Source of the DNA: Cladocopium goreaui
Taxonomy: Eukaryota > Sar > Dinophyceae > Suessiales > Symbiodiniaceae
Length of the DNA stretch: 64,000 bases
Assembly (NCBI GenBank): GCA_947184155.2
Contig: CAMXCT020000513.1
Location: forward strand, 411,453-475,452
Direction: 5' to 3'
The number at the start of each line of letters is the position of its first letter. Position 1 is the stretch's first letter. Position numbers and translations under genes: made by a program. The notes below the pieces were generated by a model that worked only from the letters and a program-made list of their open reading frames with translations, did no database searches and was not told where the DNA came from. Below are positions 4,180-27,008 of the stretch, one piece after another.

Positions 4180-4490
4180 TAGACTCTATGCATGTGTATA
4201 ACTATAACTGTGTATGATTTTGTTTGTATATATAACTGTAACGAATTCCGGCATAATAATAACAACAATAATAGCAATAATACTGACAATCAGAATAATT
4301 ATTAACAATATATAAGAACTAGAACAATAGTAATTATTAATGAAAATGGTAACAATAACAGCAATAACAACTACAGCAATAACAACTACAGCAATAACAG
4401 TACTAAATAAATAAATGCACACACACACACATATATATACATACAATTATATACATATAAATGTAATAATGATATATATATAAAATTAGG
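4180..4490. repeat. AT-rich low-complexity tract (AATAAC/AGCAATA)
   Basis: Runs of AACAATAAT, ACAGCAATAACAACT and CACACATATATA. It lies just after copy I exon 2, between that exon and the end of the antisense gene. Open frames on the minus strand here are Ile/Val-rich by-products. Confidence 0.85.
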
Positions 4491-4934
4491 TCATTCAAAG
4501 CAGGTCTCTACCCAAACCCAACCAGGTCTCCACATGTTCATCTTTGGAGCAGCCATTTTGCTCATTAGTTTACCCTAACCTATTAGGCATTGGTCAAAGG
4601 AAATGTTATAGCAAGGGGCCACAAACAACATCAGAGGTTAAGATCAAAAATCATCATGGTACATCTAATTTTTATGGAGTTGTCATTTTACTTTTTTGAT
4701 CACTGAGCTATGTGCTCTGCTGTGCTGTGGTTTTCCCTGGTGCATTGTGCCAGCAAGCGCAACTTTTTTCAAGCATCTCGGCTTCAGGGGGTCATGCCCC
4801 TGGGTTCAATTTGGGCACAGGCAAACCCAAAATCACACCTCAGATTCTTCAAGTTTTTTAAGGTGACCTCAAACTTTTACATTGAACTATGAGTTTGCCT
4901 CAGGGGGCATTTCTGTTGATGCCAGTATAGAATC
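4491..4934. other. Unassigned sequence, 3' of the long minus-strand gene
   Basis: Probably the 3' UTR and flank of the minus-strand gene that stops at 4,935. No further exon or repeat recognised. Confidence 0.3.
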
Positions 4935-7900
4935 CTAGAGTCCCAAGCGGTCGACTTCCTCTTTGGCCATTTTTTTGGCAAGTTCACGGTCTTTATGCTT
5001 CGAGTACACTTGCCTGTACACCCGGCTGTAGACACGGTTCCGTGTTGCAGGCTTGTAGCCATCCTTAGATTGTTCTGCACACAGAAGTATTGTATCAGTG
5101 GGAGATCAGCATATTATTAATTCCAATTTCCTAAAATTTATTGGGCCATGGGGTCCTAAATATATCATCCAAAATTGCTCAAAGTCCTTTGATATGGCTT
5201 GAAAGTTGAAACCATGCAGAAAAGAAGGGCCAAGTAGCCGATCCCTTCTCCTCATTCTCTTCTTCTTTCTTGCCCTTGTCTGCATTTTTCTTCGGACTTG
5301 TTTTTTTCTTCGGGGCTGCCTTCGCCTTTCCTTTTGGAACTGCTTTTGCTCGGGCATATGTCGTTGCCTTCACCTGCTTGCCAACCACTTTTGTCTTCGG
5401 ACTTGCTTTCGGCTTTGCTTTCGACTTTGCTTTGGACTTAGAGGCTGTTTTCGGATTCTTTTGGGAAGTGGGTGCCTTTGCTTCTGGAGTCTGCGCTTCA
5501 AGTCTCTGCCCACGCTCCTCAAGATTTACCAGGGTTTTAAAATTTATAACCATTAAACATTGCAAAGAAACCTATACAACATTTTCTACTTGTGAGGGCA
5601 ACATAGCTGCTGGAACTTCCTGTCATACAAACATGTTTATATGGCTTGCATACACAAGAAAAAACAATAATATTAATTTTTTGGAACTTCAGTCCTCAGA
5701 ACTGCCATGCGAGACCATGTCAGGTTCTTGATGTCCACCAAGATCCTTTGTAGCATCAGCAGGCAGAGGTTCCTGTCCAGCTGGGGCTAGCTCCTGCAGT
5801 TTTTGTTTGCAAAATGGAAAGCCTGCCTTCTAAACAATTCTGAAAAAAATGTTTTGTCTACAACAATGGTGTCCTCGTCCCTCATGCCACCTTCTTCAAG
5901 TCGGAGGGTCTTTTGGGAGTCCGGGGAGTCAAACACAGTCTTTTCTGTCGCTGGGGAGATCATCTCGAAGTCAGAGCTAGTGAACAGGGTGCCATTTGCA
6001 AACTTTTCCTGGGTCTCAAAAGCTTCTTGTACTTCATCATGCCCTATGGAGTCAGCAGTTGCAGTGGTGATGTAAGAATCAATGAGCTTGCCCAGCTTGT
6101 CCACAGTCTCCTCCCCCATGTTTGGAATGAATGTTTCCTATCTAATTTTAACCACTATGTGCCAAGTCACCCAAATAAAATAATTACATTTAAGTGCTCC
6201 AACTATCTATCCCATGTCACCCCTGTCCTTTTTTGGATACCTGGTCTTCTCTGCCTTTGAGCCATCATGATCTGATGGCTCACCCAAGCTGCCGGCAACA
6301 TCCAACGTCTTGGAGGCCACCTGCCAATGAGTGACAATATTAAGTCGAAAAGATTTCACATGATGTTGATGCATAAACAAACAAAGCAGTAGTAGGGTCA
6401 GTAGTCACAAATAAAAAAGCTGTGACCAAGTCGAACAAATGAGCTGCTGCACTGCTAGTTTCTGGCACTGCTGTGTCCACAAAGCTGTGGGAACGCTGAA
6501 GCCCCTTGCCACCCTTCTCATCCTCAAAGCACTTTGTGCCAACCTTCTCATCATTGAAGCCCTTTGAGCCACCCTTCTCACCCTCAACGCCCTTTGTGCC
6601 AACCTTCTCATCATTGAAGCCCTTTGAGCCACCCTTCTCACCCTCAACGCCCTTTGTGCCAACCTTCTCATCCTTGAAGCCCTTTGAGCGACCCTTGTCA
6701 CCCTCAACACCCTTCGAGCTAACCTTCTCATCCTCAACGCCCTTCGAGCTAACCTTCTCATCCTCAAAGCCCTTTGGGCCAACCTTCTCATCCTTGAAGC
6801 CCTTTGGGCCAACCTTCTCATCCTTGAAGCCCTTTGGGCCAACCTTCTCATCCTCAGAGCCCTTTGGGCCACCCTTGTCATCCTTAAAGGTCTTTGAGCC
6901 AACCTCATCATCATCTGAGACAACAGCAGCATCCTCTGAATCACCATGCTTGCGCTTTCCACCACTGTGCTTCTTCTTGCGGGGTTCCTTCTCGGTCTTA
7001 TCCTGGACACACAAATCACCAACAGTTCCAGTGAAACATGTACCAACAGAGGCACACAACAACAAGCATTCCAAGAGTAAAAAGCACAACTTGAAAAGCT
7101 ACAAAAGGTCCACTGGGCTTTTTTGACATACATAAAACACATCAGATATTGGCAAATTGTGGCACTCCTGCTTCTTCTTGTGTTGCTTTCCATCTCCATC
7201 ATCCTTCTTGCGTCTTTTGCTTTTTTTTTATCACCTCCACCTTCACCTTCATCTGCATCAGGATCACTATGGTCATCACCATCGCCTCTTTGAAAGTCGT
7301 CGAACATACCATCAAACTCGTCTTTCTTGAACTTTTTTGCTGCAGGCCTCTTCAAAGTCTTTGGGGGGTCTTCATCATCATTCGTTTCATTTTTTGGTGT
7401 CTTTCCCCTGGGTTTTTTGATTTTGGGCTCATCACTTTCATCCTTTGGTTCTTTTCCTAACTTCTTTTCTTCAGATGCCCTCTCATCTGAAGAACTTGCC
7501 AGCTCACAGCGCTGAAGCAAAGACGGTGCTGCACCTGTGGCAAGTTTGGGGTCCCATTTCTGTTTTCCAAAAGTTTCAAGTTGAAAACCAGCTTTGCAAA
7601 AAGCTTTGCAAAAAAGAAAAATAGCACAGCTATGATAAAAAGCTAGGCACGGCTGGAAGCAGGTTTGGCTGAAGCCTTTGGTGTAGTCTGTGAGGAAGAA
7701 GCCTTTGGCACCACACTCAATAGGCTCTGGTAGCTCTCAAGTTCAAACCGAGGTGTAACTGTAGCACACCCCTGGTAGCCAACCCCCAAGGTCCGGGATG
7801 GTGTCCCCATGACACCACAAAGCAGGGCTAAGATCCTTTTGGTGTTGGATTTCTTGAGCCCATGAATGCAAAGGGTGCATCTTAAAATTGGTGGGCTCAT

Positions 7901-8980
7901 GTCCACCTGATATTCATAGAAGAGTGGGTTTCCAATAATGCAGGGTACCCCAAAATAGATAGTACAGTTCATTGTCTCAGTGAAAATCCCACCAAAAAAG
8001 AATATATTTTAGGGTACCTCCATTTTAGGAAATTTCCATATAAACATCAACAATTTGACAATGTATAGACACTGGTATGTTAAGGATATGATCTGCAAAT
8101 TGTAAGTTTTCCACATATATTGCTAAATCACTAGATGGTAACAGCCAAGGGTCTATGACTACCAATCAGCGCACCAAGATGCAATCTATTGCAACCACGA
8201 AGATTGATGGTTTCGTGAAACCATGGGGCAGTTTTACCCCCAAACCAGCCAAGCATTCATTCCTTGGCACCCCAAATGCACTGCTTGCAGTGCAAAACAC
8301 TACACTAATGGCCTCAACCATGACCGGTGTTGTCACCAGTTTTCATCCAAAAACCTTTGCCTGAAGCTATCCCACAAATCATTTTAAGACGCGACTGCCT
8401 CAAAAGTTGGCTGCTAAATATGCTGAATGATTGTAGTTTAGATGTTCAAAATTCAATATGTTTCGAACATTGGGATCCTTCAGTTTCCAGGCCACCAACT
8501 AAAAGAGTTGATACATCTCATCCATCTTCCCCTCAAAGGTGTGGACCAACATTGCCACAGGTCGAATCGGCACCAAATCCTTGCCACTTCCGCTTTGGTC
8601 TGGCTGAAGCCTGGCATCCATGGAGGGCAAAGTGGAGCAAAGTGGCATCAGGTTTTTGATGATCACAAAACACAACCCCATGAAAAAATGAATCATGTTT
8701 TTGATGATCAAAACATCAAATTGGCAGAAATAACCTCACTGTAGTTCACTGTTGGATGTGTTGGTTTTGTGGGCTAAGAGGTTTGTTTACTATTTGCCAA
8801 ATGATCAGTGTAAATTGAAATATTTGAAATATGCTATGATCGGCTGTTTGGTTGATTTGGGGTCCCATATTTTTTTCAGCAGCCAAAGGCCTCAACCGCC
8901 ATGAGATTTTCAGATTCTCAGAGGTGCGTAGCTTTGTCAGCATAAGCTTGGCACCAAATGTCATAGCTGAGCAAGATGCC
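4935..8980 (-). CDS. C-terminal part of the long gene: Lys/Glu-rich repeats and basic tail
   Basis: Probable exons (-): around 8,500-8,620 and 8,860-8,980 (uncertain), ~7,665-7,870, ~7,165-7,534, ~6,440-7,002, 6,241-6,320, ~5,800-6,118, ~5,700-5,795, ~5,240-5,520, 4,935-5,074. The 7,534 exon is Lys/Glu/Asp-rich (LKRPAAKKFKKDEFDG). The 7,002 exon carries about thirteen copies of a 10-residue repeat of the type KGFKDEKVGP. The ~5,500 exon is Lys/Ala/Pro-rich (SKSKAKSKAKPKAS), like a nucleic-acid-binding or linker-histone-type tail. The last exon reads RNRVYSRVYRQVYSKHKDRE then LAKKMAKEEVDRLGL and stops at TAG. Such basic tails suit a nuclear, chromatin-associated protein, which is an inference. 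The last junction needs a GA donor. Confidence 0.6.
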
Positions 8981-11900
8981 TAGGAACTGAACTGCTTAAA
9001 GAAAAATGGTTTCAAACATTGTTCAACTTAAAAACATTGTAGAACAAAAACAACAATGATGCAAGAATATGGAAGATTATGGGGTTCACAGGTTGGCTCA
9101 GAAGAAACAAAAATAGAGAGGATGATGAAAGATGTGGTTGAACCCTTGAGCCCACCTTCTTTCTCTTGCTTTCCTTGGGCTGGTCGAGGACAAAGCACAC
9201 TTTCTTCTGCGAGGTAAATGTGATGTCATTCGACCCCTCCTGTTTGTCCAGCGAATGCATGGACAATTTCACATTGACCTCCCCTGCATTTTCCAAATCC
9301 TTGATGGCCTCTTTGTAGGTCAGCACCTGCAGTTTACTTCCACCCCCATGTTCTCAGAATGAACAAAAGCAAACTAAAAAAATGGGAACACCTGTAAAAC
9401 AATGATACCCAGACGTTTGTCACAAAAAATTGGTGGTCATTTGTACCCAAGCACCTTGCCCCAAATGTCCAATGCCTTCATATGTTGGGGCAGGCGACGG
9501 TCAGGTTCCAAGATGCAGAACTCAGAGGCTAGGGCAATTTTGTAGCCAAGCCAACGCCCTGTCACATCGCTTTGCACATCCATTGCTTCAGGACCCTCAA
9601 CAAAATCGCCTGATCCAAAGCCGAACAATTCGATTGGCCCCTTCACCTGGAAGCTTTCCTTCCTGTTGTCATTGCCACAAATCCACAGGGACTCTTGCTG
9701 AGAGTCATACACCAAGCGAAAGCCCCCACACGACAGTGCAAGCCTCAGGGAAAAATCAAACCACAGGACCCCATCCTAACCCATGATTTGGTGGCTGGGT
9801 ACCATGTCATAAGCCTGAACTAACTTAGAAAATATGTTTCAAATAAGATCAAAGGAGCTTGTCAGCAATGTTTGCCTCATGTTCAGCCACTTTGACACTA
9901 CTATCGATGCGGATCCTCTTGGACTCACTTGTGGCTGCATCGCCTCAATGTTGGAAGCAACCCTTGACACCTACTATCCCCCCAAAAAGAAAGTAAAAAC
10001 AAACACACATGTCCCAGTCACTGCTGCCCCCTGACGGAGCCGCATCAGATGCTCCACGCTTGATGCCATGTGGATTGTACTTTTTGTTGTGGGCCTCCAC
10101 CAAGTCAGCCACCTGCAACTGGAATGTGTCAATGCCAGACCAGTAGTCCACCAGGTTCTGCTTGATGGCCAGACCATTTGGCACTGCAACGCAAACTTGG
10201 AAGTCTGGCATGGCTACTTCATTGGCACTGTTCTTCAGATCTTGCACCACGCTTTCAAAGCATGGAAGCCCTGGCAACTTGAGCGATCCACTTCTGCACA
10301 TCGAGTAAGCTTTCTGGCCAACCACCGACGCACAATAGGCAGTGTCAGTGTGGCTGTGGCATGCAGTTGAGCATGCCCACTTCTTGCCTGGAACCCCAAA
10401 AAGCATTGAGGAATAAAACATGCACAAGAACTTTGAGCAACCAGCCAATTCCCACAGATGAAACATTACAAACGCCCAGCTCCCACACCCAATTCCCACA
10501 CAGTCCTCCTGCCAACTGTCCCATGGCATATGATGCTGGCCAGCCATCGAAGCCCAACAGATCAATCACCACATTGGATGTGTCCTCATCCATCGGGCTC
10601 AGCAAACCAGATGTGACCTTCTCAACGATGCTCATCCCACCAAGGTGCTGCAGGGTAAAAGCAGTGTGACTTTGAAGCAACAAATCTTGTAAGTTTAACC
10701 ATTTTAAACCAATTTGGGAAAACATACGTAATCTCTTTAGGCTAGACTGCCTGTTTGAGCTCCTGCACCCGTGTCAAACGGCCATCTGTTGCGAAGCGGC
10801 CATTGTTGCGCTCCACCTTCATCATTTCATTCCTAGCATGCAGCTATGTGCTGATAGCATAAATTATTGAAATAGTGCTATGGAATCTGACCCCTTTCTT
10901 GAAAGCATCTTGGCCAAAACTGAGCCAGGGAACCTTGGCAGCATGCTCACTGAAGAGACCACGCCACTCTTGTAGAGAGCACTCTTCAAGAAGCAGTTTC
11001 CCTTGTCTTTGCTGGTGATCATGAGGGCAGAATGATATCCTTCTCTGGTGCCATAGACAGTCGTGGGCTCGAAGAAGACAGACACTGGGCGGACCTGGGC
11101 CAACAAGGATGCTACACAGAAGCATGCTGCAAAACAAACCCACCACTATTGCAAACAAGTTGAGATTTGAACAGATCAAATCTAGCTGATGGTATTTGCT
11201 GCACAAAATCTCAATCTGTAAAGTTGTTAAAGCACCATGCCTTGAGATCTCTCTGGGCATCCATGAATGTGCACTGCAACTTGTATCGGAAGTCACGCAA
11301 GATCGCATCTGCAGAGGTGTGTGCTGCTGGATCTTCCTCTGCTTCTGCGTCACTTCCTGCTTTGTAGCTTTATCTTTTTTTTATTTGTTTGGGAGCCCGT
11401 TTCAACATAAAACATCAAAAGCTAACAGCAGCTGATTTTTTAAAACTATAGTCCTTCTTCTTGCTTCTTCACTGCACCCTGATCATCCTCCTCTCTGTCT
11501 TCATCTGCCTCATCCTTCTCTTCTTTCCTGACTGGACATCCCAACCATTTTTTGGGATTTGGTCTGACCAAGTAAATGCAAAGTATATCAAAGTATGAAC
11601 ACCAAATTTAGCCAAGCCACTTGGGAGAGCTCCGCAAATCTTGTGCCCTGTTTGGCAAAAGCACAAAAGCAACGGAAGTCCTTGGGAAGGCATGCAGGAA
11701 TTGTTGGACTTGTTCCACAGTGAAGAGGATCTTCTTTCCAGGCACTACACCTGCAGCAACATAGTTCACCCACAGCATGATGCGCTCGCTGTCAGGGCGA
11801 CGGATGCCAGAGCCGAAAGAGGTGAGTATCTCCTGGAGCCAGGGTTCATTCTTTGCAGCGAAGGTCGAAGCTTCTGCATCAGCTTCAACTCCTATTGTGG

Positions 11901-14900
11901 AGGTAGTTGTGAAGGAGAAAAACAAAAATAATAGTGGGCAGTGTTTCATCAAAAATGTGTCTGTTAATATTTCTTGCACCCAAAAAGTCAGTAAGAAGAA
12001 CTTATGTGTCCAAAACTGAAAATATGCTTTATGCACTCAAAAAGTCAGGGAGAAAAATAGATGTGTCCTTGTGCTGATTTGGGAAGGGTCACATCCCATA
12101 CAGGAATTGCTTCTTGGACGAACTCGTTCACCAGCTTCCACGCTGTACCATGCATTTTCTTGCAGGGAAAGTCAGACATGGTGGTTGTTTAAGGTATTGA
12201 AGTATCACACCTTTCTATTCCTTGGGTTCAGCCTGGTGAAACCGATATACCTACTATACCCTGTACTGGTTGATCATTGTTGACATTAGATATATCGAGG
12301 TATACCACTCTTGACAGGCACTTAAGGGATGAATCTCAAATCTGAAGCTTTGTCAAAGAAATCAGCATAGATCACAATTGGGTACCCCAAGAGTTCGATG
12401 GTATTTGGATGGTTTGTTTCAAAAACATGCTGAAATCAGTGGTAAAATCAATGTAATATTTACCCCAAATTGTGGTATAAACATAATTGGATATCTTCAA
12501 ATTTACCCCATACCCATGTATAAACAATATATTATTTAGGGTTCCCAAATCCTCAAATTTGTCCCTGTACCTATTATACATTAAATACAATATAATTATT
12601 TAATACATATTATATTATATTGTAGGTGATTTTGGAGGTATACCTAGATAAGATGGCCTATTGAAATTTCAATGTCTCGAAGCCTCCAAGCTGCGAACAA
12701 GGACTGAGCGAGCCCTTGAGGAGTTCATCTCAGCTGTTGCCAGGAACTTATCCTGCAAGCACTGGTCGTTTGCCACGTTGGTGCTAAAGAGATTGTAGGC
12801 CGCTTGCAAAGAAGTTTTGCTCGCATTGTTCACTGAAGACTGAGCTGATACCACATGATCTTCCTGCTGTTTGCCACATGCTTCCAAGACGAACCCAATC
12901 TTCTTCCAGTCAAAGTCTGGGTCAAGCCCTTTCCTTGGATGATTACAAAATGGATTATAAAAATTATAAAAAACCATACCCTGCTTCCCTGCTACTTGAA
13001 AAGCACCGTTGTGTAGACCAAGCTTCACTTGAGTTCGAAGCTCATTGTCCAAGGTCCTTGGTTCATGGATGCATGGATGGATCTTGGCATTTAAGACCCT
13101 GTGGCTTGGATGTTTACAACCCTTGTGATTTTCCTGTGGGGTTCGTTTTTCAAAATTAAAACAACATAAAATAATGATCATTGGTCAAAATTAAAACAAC
13201 ATAAAATACTAATCATTGGACAGGTTGTTTTTTTTTTTGGGGGGGGGCAGGGGCAAAGATGGACTTGGTATATCACCCAATGTTATTGATATCCAGGAAA
13301 TTCCCGAGAATCAATCTCTGTGTTGGGATTGGTGCTATTTCCAGAAACCCATGCTAGTTTGGAAAGCGTGTTATCTTTGGATGCCAAAAACAACACATTT
13401 TTGTGGTGCCCCTTATCCTTTTGTGGGCCCTATAGCGATAAATTTCAAAAACGAACCATAAAGATTGTCAACCTTCAAACATGGAGAGATACATTACAAA
13501 AAAGTTGTTATATAGAAACCATGGTTTCGGTTTTTTGGGGGGATATAGTTGCATACCGTTTTTATTTACATGGGGTTCCCCAACTGAACAAAATCAATGG
13601 GCAAGAGACCCAACAGATTGACATAAATAAAGAATGGATGGGTTTGGGATGAAATCCATGTCACCACATGTGGTGTACAATATTGTAAGTGACATGGGCT
13701 TTCATTCCCAGCTATTTGTAAGCAACATGAACTACATCCCCAAAATTGCCAATGATATGTTATGGTCTTAATTCCCCAAGCACTGCCAGTGACATGGTTT
13801 GCATCCCCAAAATTGCCAGTTACCAAAATTGCCAATGACCAAAACTGGAAGTGACCAAAATTGCCAGTGACCAAAATTACCAATGACGTGGTTTCCTCAA
13901 ATATTGCCAGTGACGTGGTTTGCATCCCCAAAGTACTGTGAGTGACGTGGTTTGCACCCCAAAACAATCCAAGTGTTGCGGTTTGAATCCCCAAAATACT
14001 GTGAGTGACGTGGTTTGGTTTCCCAAAATACGGTTGGTGACGTGGTTTGCTTTCACAAAGCCTGGTGAGTGATGCGCTTTTCAGAAACCACATCACTCCC
14101 TAGGCCCCAAGTGCAACCCCAAGTGTATTTGTGGCAACTCCCCACAACATGTTTTCAGTGTAATTTCACTTGTTGATTTTAAGACCAGAAAGTGATTCGG
14201 AATCTGAATTCCACATCACAAATCCTAGGTTTTTGAATAAGTCAAAATTGGGAAGCCCAAATTTCAAAATCCCAAAAATCTCGACATTCCCCATAGATGC
14301 TAGTTTGTGATGTGGAATTCAGATTCCACATCACGTTCACTGCTAAAATCTGTCTTGCCAAAAATACAGTCTTTGGCTGGTTTTAGCAAATCCTGTGCAG
14401 CCAAGGTTCCCGAGCTTCCACTGCGCCATGATGCTATTCAGCTCTGTGCCTTGACCAAGATACCCTTGAAGGAGGGGCCAAACATGGTTCATGAGGCAGC
14501 AGTTCTGGAGTAGCTCAACCATGCCAGCTTGGTCCCGCTGAGCCATCTTCTGACAAGGTAGCAAAAGATGAACATTGGGAATAATATAAATCTGATACAC
14601 ATGTTTTTTAGGAACCCCCTGCCTTCTGTTTGCTGGGAGCGTTCTTGCCCACCTTCCGGTTGAAATCTGACAGTGCCCGATCTGCCCACAACTCAATGGC
14701 ATCATCAGTCACTGTCTGGCAGCAAAGGCAGGGCATAAAAAGGTTGTCGTTTGTCAATTTCATGTTTGAAAGACTTGGACTCTGGGATCATTCATGTTTT
14801 AGGGCCCCAAAATTTTGAAAGGATATTATTACTATAATTACTCAGTAACCTTGGACAAAACAGTTTAAAATTTAAATGCCCACTGGGTCAGATGAAATTT

Positions 14901-17900
14901 GTTTGTTCATCTTTGAGGGGGCACGTTAAAAACCCTGCCTGGATATCCTTCCAAATCTTTGGCACATTCTCCAAAAGCTCGGTCCCAGGGACAAAGTAGT
15001 CACCCTCCATGTTCTCCATAGTCATGGCTGCAGGGCAAACGGAGGACACTGAACTCTAAGTTAACAACATGACATCTCATTGACTCTTGATTTTCTTCTG
15101 GTGGCCCTAAGGCTCCTTAAGGCCACTAGTGGTCCTAAGTCCTTTCAAGTTTGTTAGATTTGATCTTTAATATACACAAGAAAGTTGTTGGGGGCAACAA
15201 CATTGCAATAAGACATGGGGCCTGCATGCTCAGGCTTCGATTCACTGTAGCAGATTTTCAAAGCTTCCCAAAGCCCACTGGGACATCGAAGCAAGTTGTA
15301 GATCAACCGTCGCATGGAGTCAGTCACCCTCCAGCCCTTAGTTGAAATTTTGGAATAAGACATTGATGATTCAAAATTGAACTGAATTTTCTTTTAGGCA
15401 TGCATATATTAGAGACAAGGCTCGCGATGGTTTCCAACAGTCTTGTTGTAGTCAGCTATGCACCCATATAGGACATCACGAAGGGCACTCTTGCGAGCCT
15501 GTGGGGCAGATTGCTTGATCCTCACTGTCTCCTTGAAAAGCAGCATCATATCCAAGGCAGAGGGCTTTGTCTTCTCGGCAGTGCGATTGGCCAGGCCTGG
15601 GCTCAGGGGATTTGGAAAAAACAAAATTTGGCTGCAGTTCAATGGATAAAGAAAACCAAGGGCCTGGCAAAGTGTTTCATACAGGAAGTCCTCAGCCTTG
15701 GCATGCTTTGTGAAGTTGCACTTGATGTAGCGGAAAGTGGCAATTGTTTTTGCCATACCTTCATCTTCAGACAAAGCATCCTCTGTGATGCCCTTAGCTG
15801 CAGGATGGGCAAATCTTTTTCAATATCAGTCAATGATTCTTTGATATTCTTTGATTTTGATGGGGTTAGGATATGGAATGTAAAAAATTGAAACAGGTTC
15901 CAAGGATCCAAGTCAATCAGCAAAGCAAGGATGCCAAGCATGATGATGGCTTTGGTCTGGCCATCCACGTAGCCAACTGTGAACGGTTTGATAGTATACA
16001 CTGACCTGTCAGCCTCCACAGTTGTCATGTCAAACTTGATCTCTAGGCTTTCACGGTGTGCCTCATACCCCCGGTTCAGAAACGAGGGAAAGTGAGCACG
16101 GACTTGGTGATTGGCTGGCCATCGGCCCATCAAGCCATACTTGGCACTCTCTGCAAAACTCAGCATCCACAAATCCAGAATTAACCCATTGGAGCTGGTC
16201 ATGGGCACGTTCATGGCGGGCGACTGGATTGGGATGTGCTTGGCAACGCATTCCATATCAAAGATCTTCTGCATTGCCTTCAGGCAAGATGGTAAAATGG
16301 GATAAAGGGAGCTGGGCAGCTATGGGAATTTGTTTGATTGGCCCAAATGCCAGCCTAGGAACATCCATGAAACGATCTGGCCCAGCTTCGTCACGTCCAT
16401 ATTGAAGCCAAAGCCAAGCTCCCATGTTGGAATCTAAAGTGATCTGCAGGGCACAAGATTGTTTCATGTGTAAATTCCATGCTTAAAAAAATTAAAGGCA
16501 TCAGTAGCAGCTTCAAGATGTGACTTGTTTGGATCAAGCCTCCTCCATTCTTGAAATCAAAGTCTCCTTGATGGACGGTGGGTCTTGACCAGGTTCAATT
16601 GCCTGACAGGTAGGGGTCATACGAACACTTAAAAATGATTCAATCAATTTCATCAAAATTGATGCACTGATTTCAATTCATGTATATAATTGCATTGAGG
16701 CACCAGTCTTGGATCTCCACCAGTGTTGCCAGACTCCATGTTGCGAGGCTCTGGCTTCAGTATGCTCATGCAAAAGCGAGCGCTACCAACTACTTTCGAG
16801 TGGCTTGAAAGCAGCCTGTGTGCAATGGTGTAGTGCCATGCTCATGACATGCCCTCAAATAGACAATGTGGGCCCACACAAAACACAACGTTTGTTTGCT
16901 GAAATCTGAACTATATTTTCACCTCATACATGCCAAGCTAGTGGTAGCGATGAAAGGTTACCCTCATGGTATGGAGGGTGTGAATGTCTGGGTTTCCCAG
17001 AATCACAGCACCTCTCTGAATCCTAGCAATATTCAAAAGAAGGAATTCAATCCTTCGTGGGGGCACACGAGCCCTAGCAATTTGGCCAGCCAGCATTCGA
17101 AGATAATCAATGCCACGGCTATATTGGTGGTAGTTGGATTCAAGATAGTCTGCCAGATCACTTAGCACCTCTTTTCGATCATCATCAAGATAGGCTGCCA
17201 CACCTGCCAGTTTCAAACATATCTAATTTTGGGGGCAAACACTTTGGTCATTTGTCATCAATGGCCTGGGACTTGATTTGAGGCACAGCGACGCAGAGCA
17301 TTCGTGGTCTCATCGATTGCGTTTCCAGGCCATACTGCCAAAATCTGCTGGGAAAGGGTGACATCTGAGATAAAGCCCTTGACCATGAGGAAGACATCAT
17401 TGGGACTATCCCCGACAAACCGTGGAGGAATTCGATTCCCAACATCTGCCAGTAGGTGCTGTGGCAAACCTCATGCTGATGGGCAACCAGTGGTTACCTG
17501 GTGATTTGAGTTGGGTTCCCCTAGTTGTTGCTATCAGGTACCCCTCCAACTTCACCAGCCCAACCACCAGTTAATGACCAAAATAATATTAAAACTTGGT
17601 AATGTTATTTTTTGAAAGACATAAATTAGTTCTAGAAAATTGATTGAGCCAGGGCACAATCCCTTCTTGCAAACACAAAGCTATGGGGAATCTCCTTCAA
17701 GTCATGATTCAGCTTCCGTTTCCGGTATGCCCCTGACAGAGTTGAGTACTTTGCCAAAGAATCTGTCCAATTGCGAATGCTTGTGATGTACTCTGCATGG
17801 AACTCAATGCCAGCACGTGCAAAACCAGAATGTAGCCGTTGTTTCAACCACCTGAGCCACAGGCATTGAGGAGCAATGCAACTGAATGCAACTGGCTTGC

Positions 17901-20900
17901 AGAAGCAATGCTTTGGTGATGGCTGACACTTGGCTCAACTAAGGAAAATGCGAAACGATGTCATCAGGTGTTTGCCTAGGATGGTGCCATTGATGCACTG
18001 GGGTACATATGTTTGAAACCACAGATGGTGCCTGTGCAAAGACCATAAATTGAGTTAGGCTGCATGGATTCATCAGCTTGACGTATCAGCTTCGACACCA
18101 TTCCGAAGAATGCATCTAAGTACAATGGCACTGGCTGACAAACAGAGCTAACCCTAAAAAAACTGGTGTGGACTGAGTCAAGCACCCACGTCTTGATGCG
18201 TGTGTCCAACTGCCATGTGCTCATGGCCCATCGAGGCAAAGTGGCGGCTGCACACCATATGGCAGCAGTATCTGCCAAGGTGGGCATTGCGATATTCCTG
18301 AGGTTGAGTTCTACATAAACTGAAACACGTTTCATATCAATCCATACTATATGTTTGGGTACACTTAGATATCATTACTTCTAACAGGGCTCACAACCAA
18401 ACTTCATAAAGTTTACAGGGCAAATGATGTTGGACAGTTTTACCAAACAATCAAAATCAAGAATCCTTTGGCGTGTTGTCTGTAAAGACACGAAGGTGAT
18501 TTGGCCAGGGTTCATTGTTGCGTTGGCATTTAGCAAATGTCTTATCCAGGCTTAGGTTCAAGACTTCAAGGCTCCAGTCACTTCCTGTAGATTGCTCTGC
18601 ATCACATACATACACCATCACAGAGTGGCCATGCATGATGCATGCAGTGAACTCCAGTTCTGGCCGCTTCTTCGTTTCCAATGGCTTCGGTGTTCGCCCT
18701 GCTGCGAAACGAGGAAGGCGAAATTTGGACTTGTCCATGGAATCGATGATGCAGACAAGGATGTCACGTTGCTGCTTGGCTCTAGTTTTCATTTGGGAAT
18801 AGACCTGCCGGTCACTGAAAACTCCCCCCAGATGCCTCATGTAGCAATCACAGGCAGCTGCATGGTCATTGATGCCCTTGGCATTGCGAATGGCACTCTT
18901 GAGCTTGTGGCAAACTGCACACTGAGCATGTGTTGACTCAGCCCTGAATTTAATTTTTCGGCGCCAACCTGATGTTCTGAGGGTACGAAAGAATGTTGAA
19001 GCTGAAGCTATAGATTGTTGCTGTGCAAAACATTCAGCTTGGTAAAGACGGTACAGGTCTGAATAGGTACCTGGTGGAAGAAACCGTCTTGGCAGAGTTG
19101 AAGGATCATGATCCCCAATACCCATGTCCATTTCGAAAGAATTCGTCATCAGACAGTCAAGCAATCGTTTGCGACCTTCTTCTGTAGATGCCCACTGCTC
19201 TTTGGGGTTGAAGTGCATCCTCAATATGGAGCTAATGTCAATAAAAAAGAATTACTAAATACTGCCAATACAACAAGTCAGTGTCACAAGGCACTTCTGG
19301 GGCCATGGCTCATGGGGTAAAGTCTCTGCTATGCCCCAATAGGTCTTCCGCAAGAATGACAGCACAGATGCAGCTGCTGGGGCACTATGTGAGTGATGTC
19401 CTAGGTTCCCATGTGTTAAAAAATAGAAAACATAGTTTGGGGATAATCCCATGAATTTGGGATTCTGAAAAATAGCACATATCACCCTTTAGAACCTAGG
19501 GACCCACTATATACTCACATTCAAGGGCATATGCAATAACTAAAACACATATTGTGAAAAGGGGGCCAAGCTTCCAAGACTTCGGCCATCTGTTCCCTTG
19601 AAATTCCGTTTGCATCTCAGAATTCGCTCCTTGCCAATGCCCAGGATTTGGAGCCAAGCCTGTCTGCATACCTGAATACCTGAGGCCAGGGAATGATGTG
19701 GGCAAATAAATAGCAAATTTCAATGTGCAGTTTTTCCTTTGGATAAAAAACGGGCCACCTTGGATAAACCAAGAAGTTTTCCCACGACAACTGCTTGATG
19801 AACTGTTTGATGACGATGATGATGATGATGATGATGGGGACTCTGATCCATCATCCTCGGGTTCTCCCTCATCCATCATCAGGGAAGAGTTCTGCAAGCT
19901 CCACAACCTAAGCCACAGGGATTGCAGAAAGAAAGAAAGAAAGTAGAGAGGTTTAGAAACTGCTGCTTTCCAAGATATGGCAAGGGACAGGGAATCCTGT
20001 GAATTCTTGCTCAATGACCAGAATGTGACCACCAAGGTCATAACTGTTTTCAAAGTGAGATTGCGTTTGCACCTCGATTTGCAGCATGGCCTCTTCAATG
20101 CCATCTCAACACGTTCCAGTGATTTCCCATTCTGTTGATAACTGGTGCCACCACCTTCGCTGAGCTTTGAAGGCTTTAGCAAAACAATTTATACCAGGTA
20201 TTTCTCAAAAATGATGATTCCCAAAATTGCTTCAAGGGTTTAGCTTAAAAGGACATTTCGAGCACTAACCATGTTGAGAAATTCTTGTCCCCAAAAAATA
20301 GATCCAATTTTTGTGGGGTTCAGCCACATGACAAATAAACACCAAATCTGGGTATGACTAGACACTTTCAGTTTCCAGCTCCAAAGACTGCAGCTGATTC
20401 CAAGACAAATTGCAGATGGATTCCACCAATGGCCTCACCTTCTTGGCAGGTGGCTCCACAGCATCTTCAGATGATGAAGCACTGCCAGAGCTGCTGCTGT
20501 CATACTCAGATGACGAGGCGCTGTACCGCTGCAGTGCCATGTGTCTCAAAACGTCTCAAACAAGCTGTTTCAAGAAAGCATTCAATGCTATTAGATTCCA
20601 ATGAGTTATGTTCATCATATCTTGAAGATGTTGTAAAATCTCAAACTGACATATCCCCAAATATCTTTTGAAATTGCCAAAGTGGGCCATAAATGGCAAC
20701 TGCTTGATGACTTGTCCCACTTGCTAAGTCTGCATGCTAGAGCTGCTAGACAGAAATCTTGGAAACATGTTTTTCCTTTTGCACAAATCCAAACCTTTCG
20801 TCCTTTGGAGAGGGAGCCGGTCCTCACAAATCCAAAAACTTTGTATTTTGGAGAGGCAGTCGGTCCTCTTTGGTGACACTGTGCCAGTTCCATGCAGCAA

Positions 20901-23715
20901 GGTCACATGCAGAGAACCCTGCCAACCATGCACATGTACAGGCACGCAAGTTCATCGCATTCCCACCCAAGTCTTCAAGCTCCTTGGTCACATGCCACTT
21001 GGCCCAAAACAAGATGATACCCCCATGATATGTCTTATATTTATAATATTTTATAATATCATATTAAATCATATTATAAATTATTATACATATTATAGAA
21101 TCAATATTCCCATGATATACCCCTTTGAATGGAAATTGTGAAAATTTTGATGCTGATTCAAGCCAAGGCTCACGCTTTGTGAGGTGACGTACATTTAAGT
21201 GATTCATAGGGAAAGACTGAAACATCATCTTCTCCAAGTCTGCCAGGGGCAAATATGATCAAATATGGGCAAATAGAAGATTAACAAAAAGATAGGACAG
21301 TGGGAGAAAAGTTTGCGCAAAGGTTTTGGAAAACAAAAACCACCAGGCCTAGCATGTAGCGTCCCATGGCCATATGGTAGAACTCACCACACGGTGTGAT
21401 GCAGGGAACGTGGACAGAATGGCCCATCCTCTCAATGGATTGACTCAAATTCACCCATCCATGGTAGCCACCCTTCACACCTTGAAGATTGCCAGTGCCT
21501 TGGTAAGGATGGGATATATCTCTGACCACTTTGATGCCTGGATATGTGCTGCCGAGCTGCATGTCTCTGCCGTGGATTCGATATATGATCGAAGTTTTCC
21601 CGCTGAAGGCACCGAGAAACTTCAGCTGGATCCACCTGTCCATTGGTGAAGCATCCATGTTTTTAAAATGGTTTCCAAATTGATGGTGTTTCAATGGGGG
21701 ATGTTTGACAAAAGCCTGGCCTCCAATTGTTCCATCATTTTCCAATGTTTCAATGGCCACCGTGGCTTATTGTATTCAGGCCTCGGGTTTGCCCAGCATT
21801 GCTTCTAAAATGATACAATCTTTGAGGAAAATGACAACAAAAAATATTTGAATCATACCAAGAAGCTTGTGGTTCAGGGCAATGTCATCGCCACCCCTTC
21901 CTTTGGACCGACGGGTGGCCATATCCAGTTGAACCAGCTCATGGTCCATCGGGAACATCAATCGCTGCCTGGTGTGGAAAGAAATTCCCACCAAAATTGA
22001 TACCTGATAACCCCTAAGCCCCATCAAAAAATGATATTTTTTTCACCAAGATACGGATTAGGAGCCGGAACATCCACCTTGAGACGTTCCACCATTTCTT
22101 TCAAGACCCTCTCCAGTGTGGCATTGTTGTCAATGTCCTTGCGCAGGATCTTGCGATGAATCACCAATATATAGATGCGCCGTCGCTTGGCAACATCACC
22201 AAGGGCCAATGGGTCAATAATGACCTGATGGGAAAGCACACAGATAATAGTTATTAAGGGTGTCTTTGAATTGGGGAATGGAAATTATCAGATTGTACAA
22301 AGTAATGATATTGTTCAAAAAGGGCCAATAACATTAAATTATTATCAGACCAGATTGTTTCCAAACAAGAAAGCAATTAGTTTCAGCACTCAAAGGGGAA
22401 ACATATTGAAAGGTGGGCCAAGTTACCTTGGCATACACATAACCATATTGCTTGAGGCGGTTGAAGGCCTTCTCAGCCTGCAAGAATCAGGGGTTAAAAA
22501 CACCACCAGATGTGGATGCTAAGAACAACATGTTTCGAAACATACCAAACAGCATTACCATGCCTGGTCCCATACCCTCATCATTCCCAGCACGTTCTCG
22601 AGGCAGCTGATCCAAGGAGATGAGCGAGCAATTTCAGCCAGGCAGCCGAAGAATACTCGAGCTTCTTTTTCTTGAAAGTAGCGGCTAGAGTTATGAAGTA
22701 TCGAAAACCTTAGGTGAGGAAATGGCCATGTTCCAGAACAAAGTGGTGGAAAACCAGGGGTGAATCTTTTCTGAAACTTGCCAGGGGACGGCTTGCAACT
22801 GAATCCACATGAGTACGCATTCTTGTGCTGTGCAACTTCCGATGTGTCTCTACCTTCCATAGAAGTGAAGATCCTTGCTTGATTCAGTAAAGCAGTAAAA
22901 ATGCTAGAGAAACAAGAGTGCACACATCCCAGAGAAAACAACAAAACACTGCAAATGTAAAAGGTTTGAAACATTGCAGAAAAGTATCCTTCGTGGCTGC
23001 AGATTGCAGAGAATAAATTTCAGTGGCCCAATGGCATAGTCACACCTTACATTGGTTTCGATGACCAAAAAAGAAAGCCTAAGAAAGCATACTATCTGTT
23101 TTGTAAGTAGGGCCAAACAAACCAGGCAAGGGACGAAGACATGAGCTTGGACTTGTATGGTGCCATCTTGAGCAGTGAGAGGAATGCCCCTTCAGCGCCA
23201 CTGCAGTCTGACTGCAGGTAGATTGGATGCATCTTGTTGATAAAGTCTTGCATGCCTCAGGGATGTCCAAATTTGCAAGATACATTCAACATTCAACATC
23301 CCTTTAGTCCCAGAGTATTTTACTGATGTGTTGGGGCATGCTGAACCCCCTCCTGATTTGCGAAGCATGTCATAGCTCCAGTCGTCCATATAACTCACCT
23401 GTGCAGGCGTCCATCGAGGCTCGTCACGATGATTGTCAGACCTCAGATGTTGGCAAGTGAGATAGAAAAAAAGAGTGCAAATGGTGGGGCTTCAGGTTGG
23501 TGAAAGCTTGTAAAAAATATGTTATGATTGGAAAGGTACGTTCTCCTCTTTGCAATGGCAAGTGGTGTCATTGACAGAGATTCAGAACGACTGGACCCAA
23601 CAGAGTCATAGGAATACTCATCCATGTACTCATCATAGCTTGAGGAAGATGAGGATGCACTCTCATCATCATCAGGCTCCTCTGAAGATTCCAGTTCAAC
23701 ACGGCCTGATGGCAT
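4935..23715 (-). CDS. Very long multi-exon gene: DNA methyltransferase + DUF7869-like region + dinoflagellate-specific tail
   Basis: About 54 exons can be chained on the minus strand in one continuous frame for most of 18.8 kb; the chained part stops at a TAG (4,937-4,935). Order from the N-terminus: acidic Ser-rich leader; cytosine-5 methyltransferase (about 23.3-20.9 kb); a second Ser-rich linker; a DUF7869-like transposase-related region (about 20.1-17.0 kb); an unknown central part (about 17-9 kb); a Lys/Glu-rich repeat region and basic C-terminus (7.5-4.9 kb). Many junctions keep phase only if GC-AG or GA-AG introns are allowed. The in-frame TGA codons at about 16,539 and 12,671 are then skipped by GC donors; if those sites are not used, the region would be three genes. 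Domain identities are firm, the single-gene model is inference. Possible start Met at 23,715. The gene lies antisense within family copy I. Confidence 0.55.
6500..6925 (-). repeat. Exonic 30-bp repeat coding for (KG..DEKVG.)n
   Basis: About thirteen to fourteen 30-bp units lie inside one exon of the long minus-strand gene, each encoding ten residues with Lys-Gly at the start and Asp/Gly-Glu-Lys-Val/Gly in the middle. Because the unit is a multiple of three, length changes keep frame. The overlapping Arg-rich frame on the same strand is a by-product. Confidence 0.85.
9156..16443 (-). CDS. Central part of the long gene, unknown function
   Basis: Exons (-): 16,387-16,443, 15,935-16,268, 15,657-15,797, 15,439-15,596, 15,222-15,336, 14,939-15,027, 14,653-14,715, 14,402-14,549, 12,684-12,928, 12,068-12,158, 11,613-11,891, 11,454-11,531, 11,241-11,356, 10,892-11,094, 10,751-10,832, 10,509-10,647, 10,028-10,387, 9,858-9,943, 9,455-9,743, 9,156-9,326. 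All junctions keep phase. Typical stretches: KPFTVGYVDGQTKAII, QARKSALRDVLYGCIADYNK, DFDWKKIGFVLEACGKQ, VSVFFEPTTVYGTREGYHSA, LLGFDGWPASYAMGQLAG, SGDFVEGPEAMDVQSDVTG and GRWLGYKIALASEFCILEP. No catalytic or membrane motif recognised; the style resembles uncharacterised dinoflagellate proteins that often accompany DUF7869-like regions. Introns are 80 bp to 1.5 kb; the largest (12,929-14,401) holds a minisatellite and a fold-back repeat. It might be a separate gene if the GC donor at 16,539 is not used. Confidence 0.6.
12929..13739 (-). other. Large intron of the long gene, first part
   Basis: Intronic in the model. Contains a duplicated segment (TCAAAATTAAAACAACATAA, at about 13,147 and 13,186), a T8G8 homopolymer run near 13,230 and no supported exon. 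Confidence 0.4.
13740..14075. repeat. Minisatellite (GTGACGTGGTTTGCATCCCCAAA)n
   Basis: Degenerate tandem units of about 30 bp, alternating CCAAAATTGCCA(A/G)TGAC with GTGACGTGGTTTG(C/G). It sits in the 1.5 kb intron between the 14,402 and 12,928 exon edges. Confidence 0.8.
14192..14334. repeat. Inverted repeat / MITE-like fold-back
   Basis: The 24 bases at 14,199-14,222 are the exact reverse complement of 14,304-14,327, and the match extends outward with a few mismatches (GTGAT on both sides). The loop is about 81 bp. Each arm also contains its own near-palindrome around GAATTC. The size and intronic location fit a miniature inverted-repeat element; no clear target-site duplication was recognised. 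Confidence 0.75.
16540..20528 (-). CDS. DUF7869-like, transposase-related region
   Basis: Exons (-): 20,439-20,528 (Ser-rich, acidic), 19,989-20,131, 19,782-19,907, 19,295-19,384, 18,466-19,219, 18,186-18,297, 18,061-18,115, 17,656-17,851, 17,266-17,458, 17,012-17,203, 16,704-16,840, 16,540-16,602. Visible signatures: RPCCKSRCKRNLT (Cys cluster), a Ser tract from a TCA repeat, FLRKTYWGIAETLP, RFLPPGTYSDLYR, CAVCHKLKSAIRNA, IDSMDKSKFRLPRF, RVFTDNTPK, then across two introns EYRNAHLGRY and VGHTHQDVDAFFGMV, later HSFVFARRDC and DVFLMVKGFISDVTLSQQ. The D..., DN... and GHTH..D pattern matches an abundant dinoflagellate and metazoan family annotated as DUF7869, whose arrangement suggests an RNase H-like (transposase/integrase-type) fold; activity is not demonstrated. 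It may be a domesticated or still mobile transposon gene. Phases agree at every junction listed when GC and GA donors are allowed. Confidence 0.75.
20710..23715 (-). CDS. Cytosine-5 DNA methyltransferase domain (N-terminal part of the long gene)
   Basis: Transfers methyl from S-adenosylmethionine to C5 of cytosine. Exons (-): 23,540-23,715 (acidic Ser-rich), ~23,290-23,395, ~23,110-23,255, 22,973-23,045, 22,576-~22,890, 22,427-22,477, 22,055-22,224, 21,867-21,968, 21,349-21,635, ~21,170-21,239, 20,946-20,983, ~20,730-20,757. Family motifs in the right order: SAM-binding motif I SDCSGAEGAFLSL (23,173-23,211); KFILCNLQPRRILF; motif IV GFSCKPSP with the candidate catalytic Cys (~22,785-22,806); motif VI LENVLGM (~22,580-22,600); motif VIII AKRRRIYILV (~22,150-22,195); a recognition-domain stretch with GYHGW; VPCITPCGEFYHMAMGRYML (~21,350-21,410); MMFQSFP; motif X DLGGNAMN (~20,955-20,975). 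Motif IV reads SCK instead of the usual PCQ. Exon phases agree from motif VI to X with GT and GC donors; joins around motif IV are less certain. Confidence 0.85.
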
Positions 23716-24245
23716 TGAAAATTGGTGATGGAGACCTTTGTGAATAGCCCCCCACAAAATTGAAGGGGGCAAACATAAATCAAAAATTGCTACATCTATT
23801 CCATGGCACCACCTGTGCCACCAACTATTGCTGGGCTTCGGCTTCGTGTGGACATGGCTTGTAGGCTAACATGGCATCATATCAGAACAATGATAGAACC
23901 TGTATATGAGAAGTTCTTAACATATTGTCTTTGAAATTATTGGATATTTAGCACATCTGGCAGCTTCGATCTGAATGGCTGGGAAGAGGCCAAGGACCTG
24001 GTTCCACTTGAGAAAGGACCTGGTTCACATGGTCAATTTATATATATATATATAGTAGTATGAATTTATCACCCATGAATTGGGGGCAATTAGCCCCCCC
24101 CAACCCGGACAAGCCTTCAATTTCAGATGAGACGTAGAACATGAGCTGCGGACAAAACTCAGACATAGACAGACACACATACTCTCATACTTTCATACTT
24201 ATACGTACTTACGTACGATATATTCTTATGAGAAGTTTGGAGTCA
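23716..24245. other. Upstream region of the long minus-strand gene
   Basis: Probably the 5' flank of the minus-strand gene. It includes a short TA run near 24,040. No exon, promoter motif or splice-leader acceptor could be assigned with confidence. Confidence 0.3.
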
Positions 24246-25402: not shown

Positions 25403-27008
25403 CGTCCCAGTACTACTTTGTACTACAAAGCTTGCACAAAGCACTTCCCAGTACTACTTTGTACTACAAAGCTTGCACAAAGTCCTTCCCAGTACTTCTT
25501 TGTACTACAACGCTTGCACGAAGCACTTCCCAGTACTACTTTGTACTAGAAAGTTTGCACAAACTACTTCCCAGCACTAGTTTGTACTACAAAACTTGCA
25601 CAAAGCACTTCCCAGTACTACTTTGTACTACAAAGCTTGCACAAAACACGTCCCAGTACTACTTTGTACTACAAAGCTTGCACAAAACACTTCCCAGTAC
25701 TACTTTGTAGTACAAAGCTTGCACAAAGCACTTCCCAGTACTACTTTGTATCACAAAGCTTGCGCACTTCACTTCCCAGTACTTCTTTGTACTACAAAGC
25801 TTGCACAAAACACTTCCCAGTACTTCTTTGTACTACAAAGCTTGCACAAAACACGTTCCAGTACTACTTTGTACTGCAAAGCTTGCACAAAACACTTCCC
25901 AGTACTACTTTGTACTACAAAGCTTGCACAAACCACTTCCCAGTACTACTTTGTACTACAAAGCTTGCACAAACTACTTCCCAGTACTACTTTGTACTAC
26001 AAAGCTTGCACAAAGCACTCCCCAGTACTACTTTGTACTACAAAGCTTGCACAAACTACTTCCCAGTACTACTTTGTACTACAAAGCTTGCACAAAGCAC
26101 TTCCCAGTACTACTTTGTACTACAAAGCTTGCACAAACTACTTCCCAGTATTACTTTGTACTACAAAGCTTGCACAAAACACGTTCCAGTACTACTGTGT
26201 ACTACAAAGCTTGCACAAACTACTTCCCAGTACTACTTTGTACTACAAAGCTTGCACAAAGCACTTCCCAGTACTACTTTGTACTACAAAGCTTGCACAA
26301 AAAACTTCCCAGTACTACTTTGTTCCACAAAGCTTGCACAAAGCACTTCCCAGTACTACTTTGTACTACAAAGCTTGCAAAAACTACTTCCCAGCACTAC
26401 TTTGTACTACAAAGCTTGCACAAAACACGTTCCAGTACTACTTTGTACTACAAAGCTTGCACAAAACACTTCCCAGTACTACTTTGTACTACAAAGCTTG
26501 CACAAAGCACTTCCCAGTACTACTTTGTACTACAAAGCTTGCACAAAGCAATTCCCAGTACTACTTTGTACTACAAAGCTTGCACAAAGCACTTCCCAGT
26601 ACTACTTTGTACTACAAAGCTTGCACAAAGCACTTCCCAGTACTACTTTGTACTACAAAGCTTGCACAAAGCACTTCCTAGTACTACTTTGTACTACAAA
26701 GCTTGCAGAAACTACTTCCCAGTACTACTTTGTACTACAAAGCTTGCACAAAGCACTTCCCAGTACTACTTTGTACTACAAAGCTTGCACAAAGTCCTTC
26801 CCAGTATTTCTTTGTACTACAAAGCTTGCACAAAGCACTTCCCAGTACTACTTTGTACTAGAAAGTTTGCACAAACTACTTCCCAGCACTAGTTTGTACT
26901 ACAAAACTTGCACAAAGCACTTCCCAGTACTACTTTGTACTACAAAGCTTGCACAAAGCACTTCCCAGTACTACTTTGTACTACAAAGCTTGCACAAAGC
27001 ACTTCCCT
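25403..27008. repeat. 41-bp tandem array, about 39 copies
   Basis: Unit about TTCCCAGTACTACTTTGTAC followed by TACAAAGCTTGCACAAAGCAC. Copies differ mainly at the end (AAGCAC, AAACTAC, AAACACG). Each unit contains the perfect palindrome CTTTGTA-C-TACAAAG and an AAGCTT site. The unit has no stop in any plus-strand frame, and 41 is not a multiple of 3, so all three plus frames stay open for 360-480 codons. These frames are therefore not evidence of a protein. Confidence 0.95.

What the first reader, a model, noticed from the sequence alone, without database searches (positions are those of the whole stretch)
4935..23715. Cytosine methyltransferase fused in frame to a DUF7869-like transposase-related region in one ~54-exon gene
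The motifs of a C5 DNA methyltransferase (I, IV, VI, VIII, X) are followed on the same strand, through phase-consistent exons, by DNTPK...GHTHQDVD signatures and then by a long unknown region with a basic tail. If transcribed as one mRNA, a DNA-modifying enzyme and a transposase-like module form one protein of roughly 2,500 residues. Capture of cytosine methyltransferases by mobile elements is known in eukaryotes, including retrotransposons in Symbiodinium, but this combination with a spliced DUF7869-like gene would be a different arrangement. It could be a self-methylating transposon or a domesticated chromatin factor.
Basis: partly seen in the sequence, partly recalled or inferred. Interest (0 to 1): 0.9.

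Follow-up and report, generated by a model that had tools for sequence, protein, structure and literature searches.

The report
Transposon carrying a DNA methyltransferase gene
A coral-symbiont alga carries a 19.6-kb element that looks like a jumping DNA transposon and holds two intron-rich genes side by side, one for a DNA-methylating enzyme and one for a transposase-like protein, which suggests that the element may mark its own DNA.

The parts
4482..24039 (-). Whole element (about 19.56 kb), transposon-like unit
   Evidence: Where compared, copies C2596 and C280 (99.4-99.6%) match the window only inside about 4457/4478 to 24046/24049 (the extra bases are shared AT-rich sequence) and then meet different flanks
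23994..24039 (-). 5' terminal repeat, AAATTGACC..., with two CAGGTCC repeats (pattern starts at 24022)
   Evidence: Exact CAGGWCYN13ACCAGGWCY match; aligned with 6 other ends
4482..4529 (+). 3' terminal repeat, inverted relative to the 5' end (pattern starts at 4501)
   Evidence: Exact pattern match on the opposite strand; similarity to the 5' end reached by 2 of 1000 dinucleotide shuffles
20824..23715 (-). Gene 1: C5 DNA methyltransferase, spliced (10 exons in the model, boundaries uncertain), stop TGA at 20826-20824
   Evidence: Pfam DNA_methylase 2.9e-8; gene model; purifying selection across paralogs
23188..23211 (-). Motif I, SDCSGAEG
   Evidence: SDCSG invariant in alignment A3
22789..22806 (-). 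Motif IV, GFSCKP: Cys kept, Pro before it is Ser here (GFPC in paralogs C1101, C1153, C5818, C1417, C458)
22585..22605 (-). Motif VI, CLENVLG
22165..22188 (-). Motif VIII, KRRRIYIL
20950..20967 (-). Motif X, GGNAMN (the true one)
20541..20823 (-). Spacer between the two genes (283 nt); an AG after TTTCTTGAAAC at about 20565 could accept a spliced leader (inference only)
   Evidence: spacers of 316-383 nt in five paralogs
4935..20540 (-). Gene 2: DUF7869 protein with a long tail, spliced, starting MALQRYSASSS
   Evidence: Same N-terminus in D. trenchii P0006 and P0007 and in paralogs C1101 and C1153; stop at 4935; that it is one gene throughout rests on annotated relatives, not on cDNA
18186..19219 (-). 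DUF7869 core, including HAQCAVC at 18930-18910
   Evidence: Pfam PF25273 3.4e-15
18730..18750 (-). First predicted catalytic Asp, IIDSMDK
   Evidence: D264 of P0005: D in 105 of 106 rows, gap in 1
18466..18483 (-). Second predicted catalytic Asp, TDNTPK
   Evidence: D351 of P0005: D in 105 of 106 rows
18187..18207 (-). Third acidic position, GHTHQD (E390 of P0005 is Q here, D391 kept)
   Evidence: D391 is D in 106 of 106 rows, E390 is E in 105 of 106
4935..5517 (-). Basic C-terminal tail ending SRVYRQ...DRLGL
   Evidence: similar ends in C1153 (E 2.3e-8) and C1101 (E 1.3e-11)

Best explanation
This is a DNA transposon of about 19.6 kb in the dinoflagellate Cladocopium goreaui, one of a family with at least seven lineages in this genome and relatives in Durusdinium. 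It carries two separate, intron-rich genes in a fixed order on one strand: a divergent C5 DNA methyltransferase and, 283 nt downstream, a DUF7869 protein whose core is predicted to have the RNase H-like fold of DDE transposases. Shown: the unit, its ends, the two frames, their conservation and the fold prediction for a relative. Inferred: the DUF7869 protein binds the paired CAGGWC repeats at the ends and catalyses cutting and joining, often into TA-rich DNA. Inferred: the methyltransferase marks the element's own DNA, so that a new copy blends into a heavily methylated host genome, or has its ends protected or tuned.
For: Discrete unit: copies C2596 and C280 are 99.4-99.6% identical to the window inside the unit (parts compared: both outer portions, not the middle) and do not match it in the 0.6-4.5 kb of flank fetched on each side. 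Ends: an exact bipartite motif in inverted orientation at both ends of the window, C2596, C280, C1101 and C1153 copies, 19.0-20.6 kb apart; no other exact hit in about 326 kb scanned, and none with 0 or 1 mismatch in 5 x 0.4 Mb of random sequence on both strands; genome-wide 34 exact hits against 13 for the reversed control. Prediction met: C458 seemed to lack the methyltransferase; an exact terminal motif was listed about 17 kb upstream of its first DUF7869 exons; the stretch between showed the methyltransferase (E 2.4e-22). Two conserved genes: pS 0.69-0.79 against pN 0.30-0.37 for the methyltransferase (6 pairs), pS 0.73-0.80 against pN 0.17-0.24 for DUF7869 (7 pairs). Fold: model with pLDDT 84.8; the 30 best-ranked VIA rows are all transposases or integrases: SIV integrase 9.8, Metnase 9.8, Mos1 9.4, IstA 9.3, TnsB 8.5.
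Against: No transcript, excision event, empty site or enzyme assay was available. The target-site duplication is unresolved: C280 shows TTTTACAT or ACAT on both sides, other targets lie in (TA)n. TIR similarity is modest: 2, 31 and 32 of 1000 dinucleotide shuffles reach it in three copies. The reversed-control pattern also gives 13 genome hits, so up to about a third of the 34 may be chance, and 21 of the 34 were not examined. No exact 3' motif was listed for C3890/C5818, C1417, C2391 or C458, and their 3' ends were not fetched. The 5' motif of C1417 has 2 mismatches and of C2391 has 1, and hits of that quality also occur at unrelated places. The window subfamily departs at two conserved sites (SC for PC; Q for E390). 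The C280 copy lacks about 100 bp over the IIDSMDK exon. Foldseek gave no row at E <= 0.001, and the model is of P0005, not of the window protein.
Confidence: 0.82

Rival explanations
1. One fused gene: the methyltransferase and DUF7869 parts are joined by splicing into one protein of about 2,500 residues.
For: Phase-compatible exon chains can be drawn (score 3417.9), and two D. trenchii gene models (P0002, P0004) join a methyltransferase piece to the same DUF7869 gene.
Against: Stop after motif X in 6 of 6 lineages, with no common splice donor before it that I could see by eye, and ATG restart in 5 of 6. D. trenchii P0006 and P0007 start at MALQR. The joined models skip the conserved MALQR exon, as an automatic join might.
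Confidence: 0.06
2. Ordinary head-to-tail host genes copied by segmental duplication, not by transposition.
For: Unidirectional gene clusters are the rule in dinoflagellates (PMC11453091, passages). C513:27x kb and C2596 share one 3' flank, so some copies are the same site.
Against: Window, C280 and C2596 have different flanks that start at the same place on both sides. The ends carry a shared inverted motif also found at both ends of diverged copies C1101 and C1153.
Confidence: 0.08
3. The unit is mobile, but another element supplies the transposase; DUF7869 plays another part (for example packaging or DNA binding).
For: Q replaces the near-invariant E390 in the window subfamily, and the C280 copy lacks part of the DUF7869 core yet sits at its own site.
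Against: Predicted DDE-type fold with nearly invariant acids, and strong conservation of the gene across lineages.
Confidence: 0.12

Closest known systems
SymbioLINE-Dnmt and SymbioDIRS-Dnmt3 retrotransposons of Symbiodinium (PMC5890265; abstract, part 1 of 3 of Results, and passages seen)
   Same: Mobile elements of the same algal family that carry a C5 DNA methyltransferase
   Different: Those are intronless and have reverse transcriptase; this unit has several dozen predicted exons in two genes, inverted terminal repeats and a DUF7869 gene with a predicted DDE fold. That paper counts exon-rich methyltransferases apart from the retrotransposon ones; some may sit in units like this.
Fungal DNA transposons that carry a TET/JBP dioxygenase (PMC12730594; start of abstract in a listing, and passages seen)
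   Same: DNA transposons with a transposase gene plus a DNA-base-modifying enzyme as a second gene
   Different: Fungi, transposases of the hAT, Harbinger and Plavaka types, and an enzyme that oxidises 5mC rather than making it
HarbingerS and MuDR elements with a SET histone methyltransferase (cited in PMC12730594, passage seen)
   Same: Capture of a chromatin-modifying enzyme by DNA transposons
   Different: Histone, not DNA, methylation; other transposase families
DNA transposons with a DNMT in marine viruses (one sentence in PMC5890265; its reference not seen)
   Same: A DNA transposon with a DNMT is said to exist
   Different: Viral host; transposase type and anatomy could not be compared
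Mos1/mariner, SETMAR, IstA, TnsB and retroviral integrases
   Same: Predicted fold and order of three acidic residues
   Different: No sequence match of P0005 to any PDB chain at E <= 1; the GHTH[E/Q]D motif belongs to DUF7869

Membership tests
TIR DNA transposon (class II) | Discrete unit with the same ends in unrelated flanks | tested here: met
   Window, C280 and C2596
TIR DNA transposon (class II) | Terminal inverted repeats | tested here: met
   Imperfect; exact bipartite motif inverted at both ends of 5 copies; shuffles reaching the similarity: 2, 31 and 32 of 1000
TIR DNA transposon (class II) | Target-site duplication of fixed length | tested here: inconclusive
   C280: TTTTACAT or ACAT on both sides; others in (TA)n
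TIR DNA transposon (class II) | Empty site without the element | not tested
   Not searched; the flank searches that were to lead to it did not complete
DDE transposase/integrase superfamily | RNase H-like fold | tested here: met
DDE transposase/integrase superfamily | Three acidic residues after strand 1, after strand 4 and at the helix after strand 5 | tested here: met
   D264, D351 and D391 by sequence and DSSP order; geometry in the model not measured; E390 is Q in the window
DDE transposase/integrase superfamily | Strand cleavage and joining | not testable with these tools
   Needs protein
C5 DNA methyltransferase | Motifs I, IV (Cys), VI (ENV), VIII and X (GN) | tested here: met
   Invariant in alignment A3 of 4 lineages; Pfam above cut-off in the window and in 3 of 4 paralogs scanned, C1153 missed; Pro-Cys is Ser-Cys in the window subfamily
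C5 DNA methyltransferase | Methylates cytosine | not testable with these tools
   No assay
DNMT5 | Sequence closest to DNMT5 | tested here: inconclusive
   Only PDB hit of profile A3 at E <= 0.1 is 7r76, named DNA repair protein Rad8 (which I recall as Cryptococcus Dnmt5), E 0.0074; no tree made
DNMT5 | C-terminal SNF2 ATPase | tested here: not met
   Stop follows motif X; dinoflagellate DNMT5s are said to have lost it (PMC12344493, passage)
SymbioLINE/SymbioDIRS DNMT retrotransposons | Intronless DNMT next to reverse transcriptase | tested here: not met
   DNMT frame is broken by introns; no reverse transcriptase among the 10 minus-strand ORFs of the unit scanned, plus strand of the unit not scanned
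Fused DNMT-DUF7869 protein | Continuous frame across the two domains | tested here: not met
   Stops in 6 of 6 lineages

The most novel reading that the evidence does not exclude
A new superfamily of eukaryotic DNA transposon, with DUF7869 as its transposase, in which a dedicated DNA methyltransferase is a fixed second gene that acts on the element's own DNA. A testable guess is that it marks the CCAGG (Dcm-like CCWGG, label recalled) present in all seven ends aligned, coupling methylation to recognition of the ends. The many further DUF7869 genes in this genome would then be other families of the same superfamily.
Probability: 0.4. Interest if true: 0.9.

Novelty: new variant of a known kind. 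Interest (0 to 1): 0.77.

Why it matters
Transposons are usually the targets of DNA methylation. Here an element with the anatomy of a DNA transposon, not a retroelement, keeps a methyltransferase under purifying selection through deep divergence, in a lineage reported to be methylated at most CG sites. It gives DUF7869, which no paper in the held library names, a likely function. It shows that exon-rich methyltransferase genes in these algae can be transposon genes, which affects how their methylation machinery is counted. It also warns that automatic gene models can fuse the two genes, as two D. trenchii models apparently do.

Tried and rejected
Single-frame ORFs against Pfam gave nothing useful; hand-joined exons were needed. 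Ab initio exon search could not decide one gene or two. Spliced-leader relic search in the window: 3 hits with up to 3 mismatches, 3.17 expected, so no evidence. Absence of the methyltransferase at C458, which I first accepted, was wrong. PDB sequence searches with P0005, P0004 and the C1153 methyltransferase composite gave no hit at E <= 1. AlphaFold of the long tail (P0004 first, 6 rows) failed, pLDDT 29.6, and was not searched. The protein search with the methyltransferase region gave only P0004, but it considered only proteins of about 580-1850 residues, so shorter stand-alone relatives would be missed. My shuffle test (0 of 1000) included the flanking TA run and was replaced. Papers on a DNA transposon with a DNA methyltransferase in dinoflagellates: none seen in the listings; subscription papers are not covered.

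Full report
What was checked. The finding claims one gene of about 54 exons fusing a cytosine methyltransferase to a DUF7869 region. Hand-joined minus-strand exon pieces score as Pfam DNA_methylase (E 2.9e-8) and DUF7869 (E 3.4e-15), so both domains are present. An unnamed protein of Cladocopium goreaui (P0003) matches the window gene almost letter for letter piece by piece, and its contig length (93,862) equals that of contig C2596 of the held genome G000. The window lies at G000 C513:411453-475452.

One protein or two. The true motif X is ELEDLGGNAMN at about 20.97 kb, followed in frame by a stop ending at 20824. The next coding piece begins at an ATG at 20540, MALQRYSASSS. Two Durusdinium trenchii proteins (P0006, P0007) start at the same place, MALQRFSASSS. 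In paralogs from the same genome the methyltransferase frame stops shortly after motif X in C1101, C3890, C1153, C1417 and C2391, and the DUF7869 frame restarts with ATG in C1101, C1153, C1417 and C2391; C3890 has TTG at that place. With the window that is 6 of 6 stops and 5 of 6 ATGs, with spacers of 283 (window), 316 (C1101), 329 (C3890), 383 (C1153), 355 (C1417) and 341 nt (C2391). The linker of the seventh lineage, C458, was not read. My exon search gives nearly equal scores to one gene (3417.9) and two genes (3414.3), and with a lower start penalty it cuts the region into six genes, so by itself it is no evidence. Two other D. trenchii models (P0002, P0004) do join the parts, skipping the MALQR exon. 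I read these as automatic joins, but only cDNA can settle it. That gene 2 is one gene down to about 5.8 kb rests on annotated relatives; the basic end rests on the exon model and on similar ends in C1153 and C1101.

A conserved pair. A search of G000 with P0006 found the DUF7869 long-tail gene at 12 places on 11 contigs (46 of 375 candidates were scored, so this is a lower bound). I group them into 7 lineages: the window group (C513 twice, C280, C2596), C1101, C1153, C3890/C5818 (99.5% identical over 5.6 kb), C1417, C2391/C5925 (grouped by equal scores) and C458. The methyltransferase lies upstream on the same strand in 10 of 12 places; in C3890 only its second half is seen, because an N gap precedes it. 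The other two places could not be judged: an N gap at C513:283k, and an unfetched upstream part at C5925. All 7 lineages have it. Synonymous sites are near saturation while nonsynonymous ones are not, for both genes, so both reading frames have been kept by selection. The composites used for this count skip uncertain junctions and contain a few misplaced pieces.

Ends of the unit. Copy C2596 matches the window at 99.6% over 15620-24049 and 4457-7611; copy C280 at 99.4-99.6% over 15699-18646, 18746-24046 and 4478-6002. Beyond about 4457/4478 and 24046/24049 neither matches the window in the flank fetched. The middle was not compared base by base. The flanks differ: AT-rich DNA for the window and C2596, non-repeat DNA for C280, where TTTTACAT (or ACAT) stands on both sides. 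C513:27x kb shares its 3' flank with C2596 and is probably the same insertion. Seven termini from four lineages align without internal gaps and share CAGGWCY-N13-ACCAGGWCY. In about 326 kb of window and fetched loci (some of it overlapping copies) this pattern has no exact hit other than at these ends; hits with 1 or 2 mismatches include the expected 5' places of C2391 (1) and C1417 (2), but also unrelated places in L001, L002, L006, L023, L032 and the window. Genome-wide there are 34 exact hits against 13 for the reversed control: 13 of the 34 lie at units examined here, 2 more are identical to the window's 5' motif (C1605, C5849; not examined), and 19 are unexplained. Both motifs of one unit lie 19.0-20.6 kb apart in five copies.

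A prediction that held. C458 first appeared to lack the methyltransferase within the roughly 20 kb fetched. The genome-wide search placed an exact terminal motif at C458:903,929. Fetching that stretch showed the methyltransferase there (E 2.4e-22), about 10 kb further from DUF7869 than in the window.

What the methyltransferase is. Motifs I, IV, VI, VIII and X are invariant across four lineages, including the motif IV cysteine. In the window group the residue before that cysteine is Ser instead of Pro, so its activity is uncertain. A four-sequence profile finds only one solved chain at E <= 0.1, 7r76, at E 0.0074, which I recall as fungal Dnmt5. A divergent dinoflagellate DNMT5c group has been described (PMC9998398, passages). 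The genome holds at least 125 matches to DNA_methylase, mostly in single long frames, in line with the published retrotransposon methyltransferases (PMC5890265).

How it most likely works. The DUF7869 protein would recognise the paired CAGGWC repeats and move the unit, often into TA-rich DNA; introns do no harm because a DNA element is not copied through mRNA. The methyltransferase would act on the element's own DNA. In a host reported to be methylated at most CG sites (PMC5890265, abstract), an unmethylated newcomer may be conspicuous, and bringing an enzyme along would remove that handicap; alternatively methylation may tune access to the ends, since all seven ends aligned contain at least one CCAGG. 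These steps are inference.

Known or new. DNA methyltransferases in retrotransposons of the same algae are published, as are TET/JBP enzymes in fungal DNA transposons. A DNA transposon with a methyltransferase is mentioned for marine viruses in PMC5890265, without detail that I could see. A cellular DNA transposon that pairs a DNA methyltransferase with a DUF7869 gene was not seen in the listings. I rate it a new variant of a known kind; if DUF7869 proves to be a transposase of its own class, the rating should rise.

Noticed in passing
G000, at least 150 places, for example L001-L008: DUF7869 is a large family in this genome, mostly in long frames without introns across the domain; some copies come as pairs of opposite genes about 4 kb apart (C3328, C1785), possibly other transposon families.
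   Followed up: partly
G000 C280:111000-120000 (L030): This near-identical copy lacks about 100 bp (window 18647-18745) over the IIDSMDK exon, so it is a decayed copy that still has both ends.
   Followed up: partly
G000 C1605:4027 and C5849:204891: Two more places carry the window's exact 29-base 5' terminal motif; further copies or fragments.
   Followed up: no
G000 C1112, C1333 and C3964; C79 and C5618: Other repeated variants of the terminal motif (CAGGTCTTTCCTTATATGCAACCAGGTCT, CAGGTCTTTATCCAAATGCAACCAGGTCT), perhaps ends of related or non-autonomous elements.
   Followed up: no
window 25405-27007: A 41-base tandem repeat of about 39 copies, open in several frames on the plus strand next to the element; its Pfam matches are below cut-off and look like repeat artefacts.
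   Followed up: no
window 42100-44518: A 2.4-kb block of TATATA/ATCAT repeat; several ends of the element sit next to shorter (TA)n runs.
   Followed up: no
window 6497-6912: A 30/60-base tandem repeat inside the DUF7869 gene tail encodes a repeated KGFKDEKVGPKG-like charged stretch in one model; the public model P0003 reads it in another frame as an RRLAQRA repeat.
   Followed up: partly
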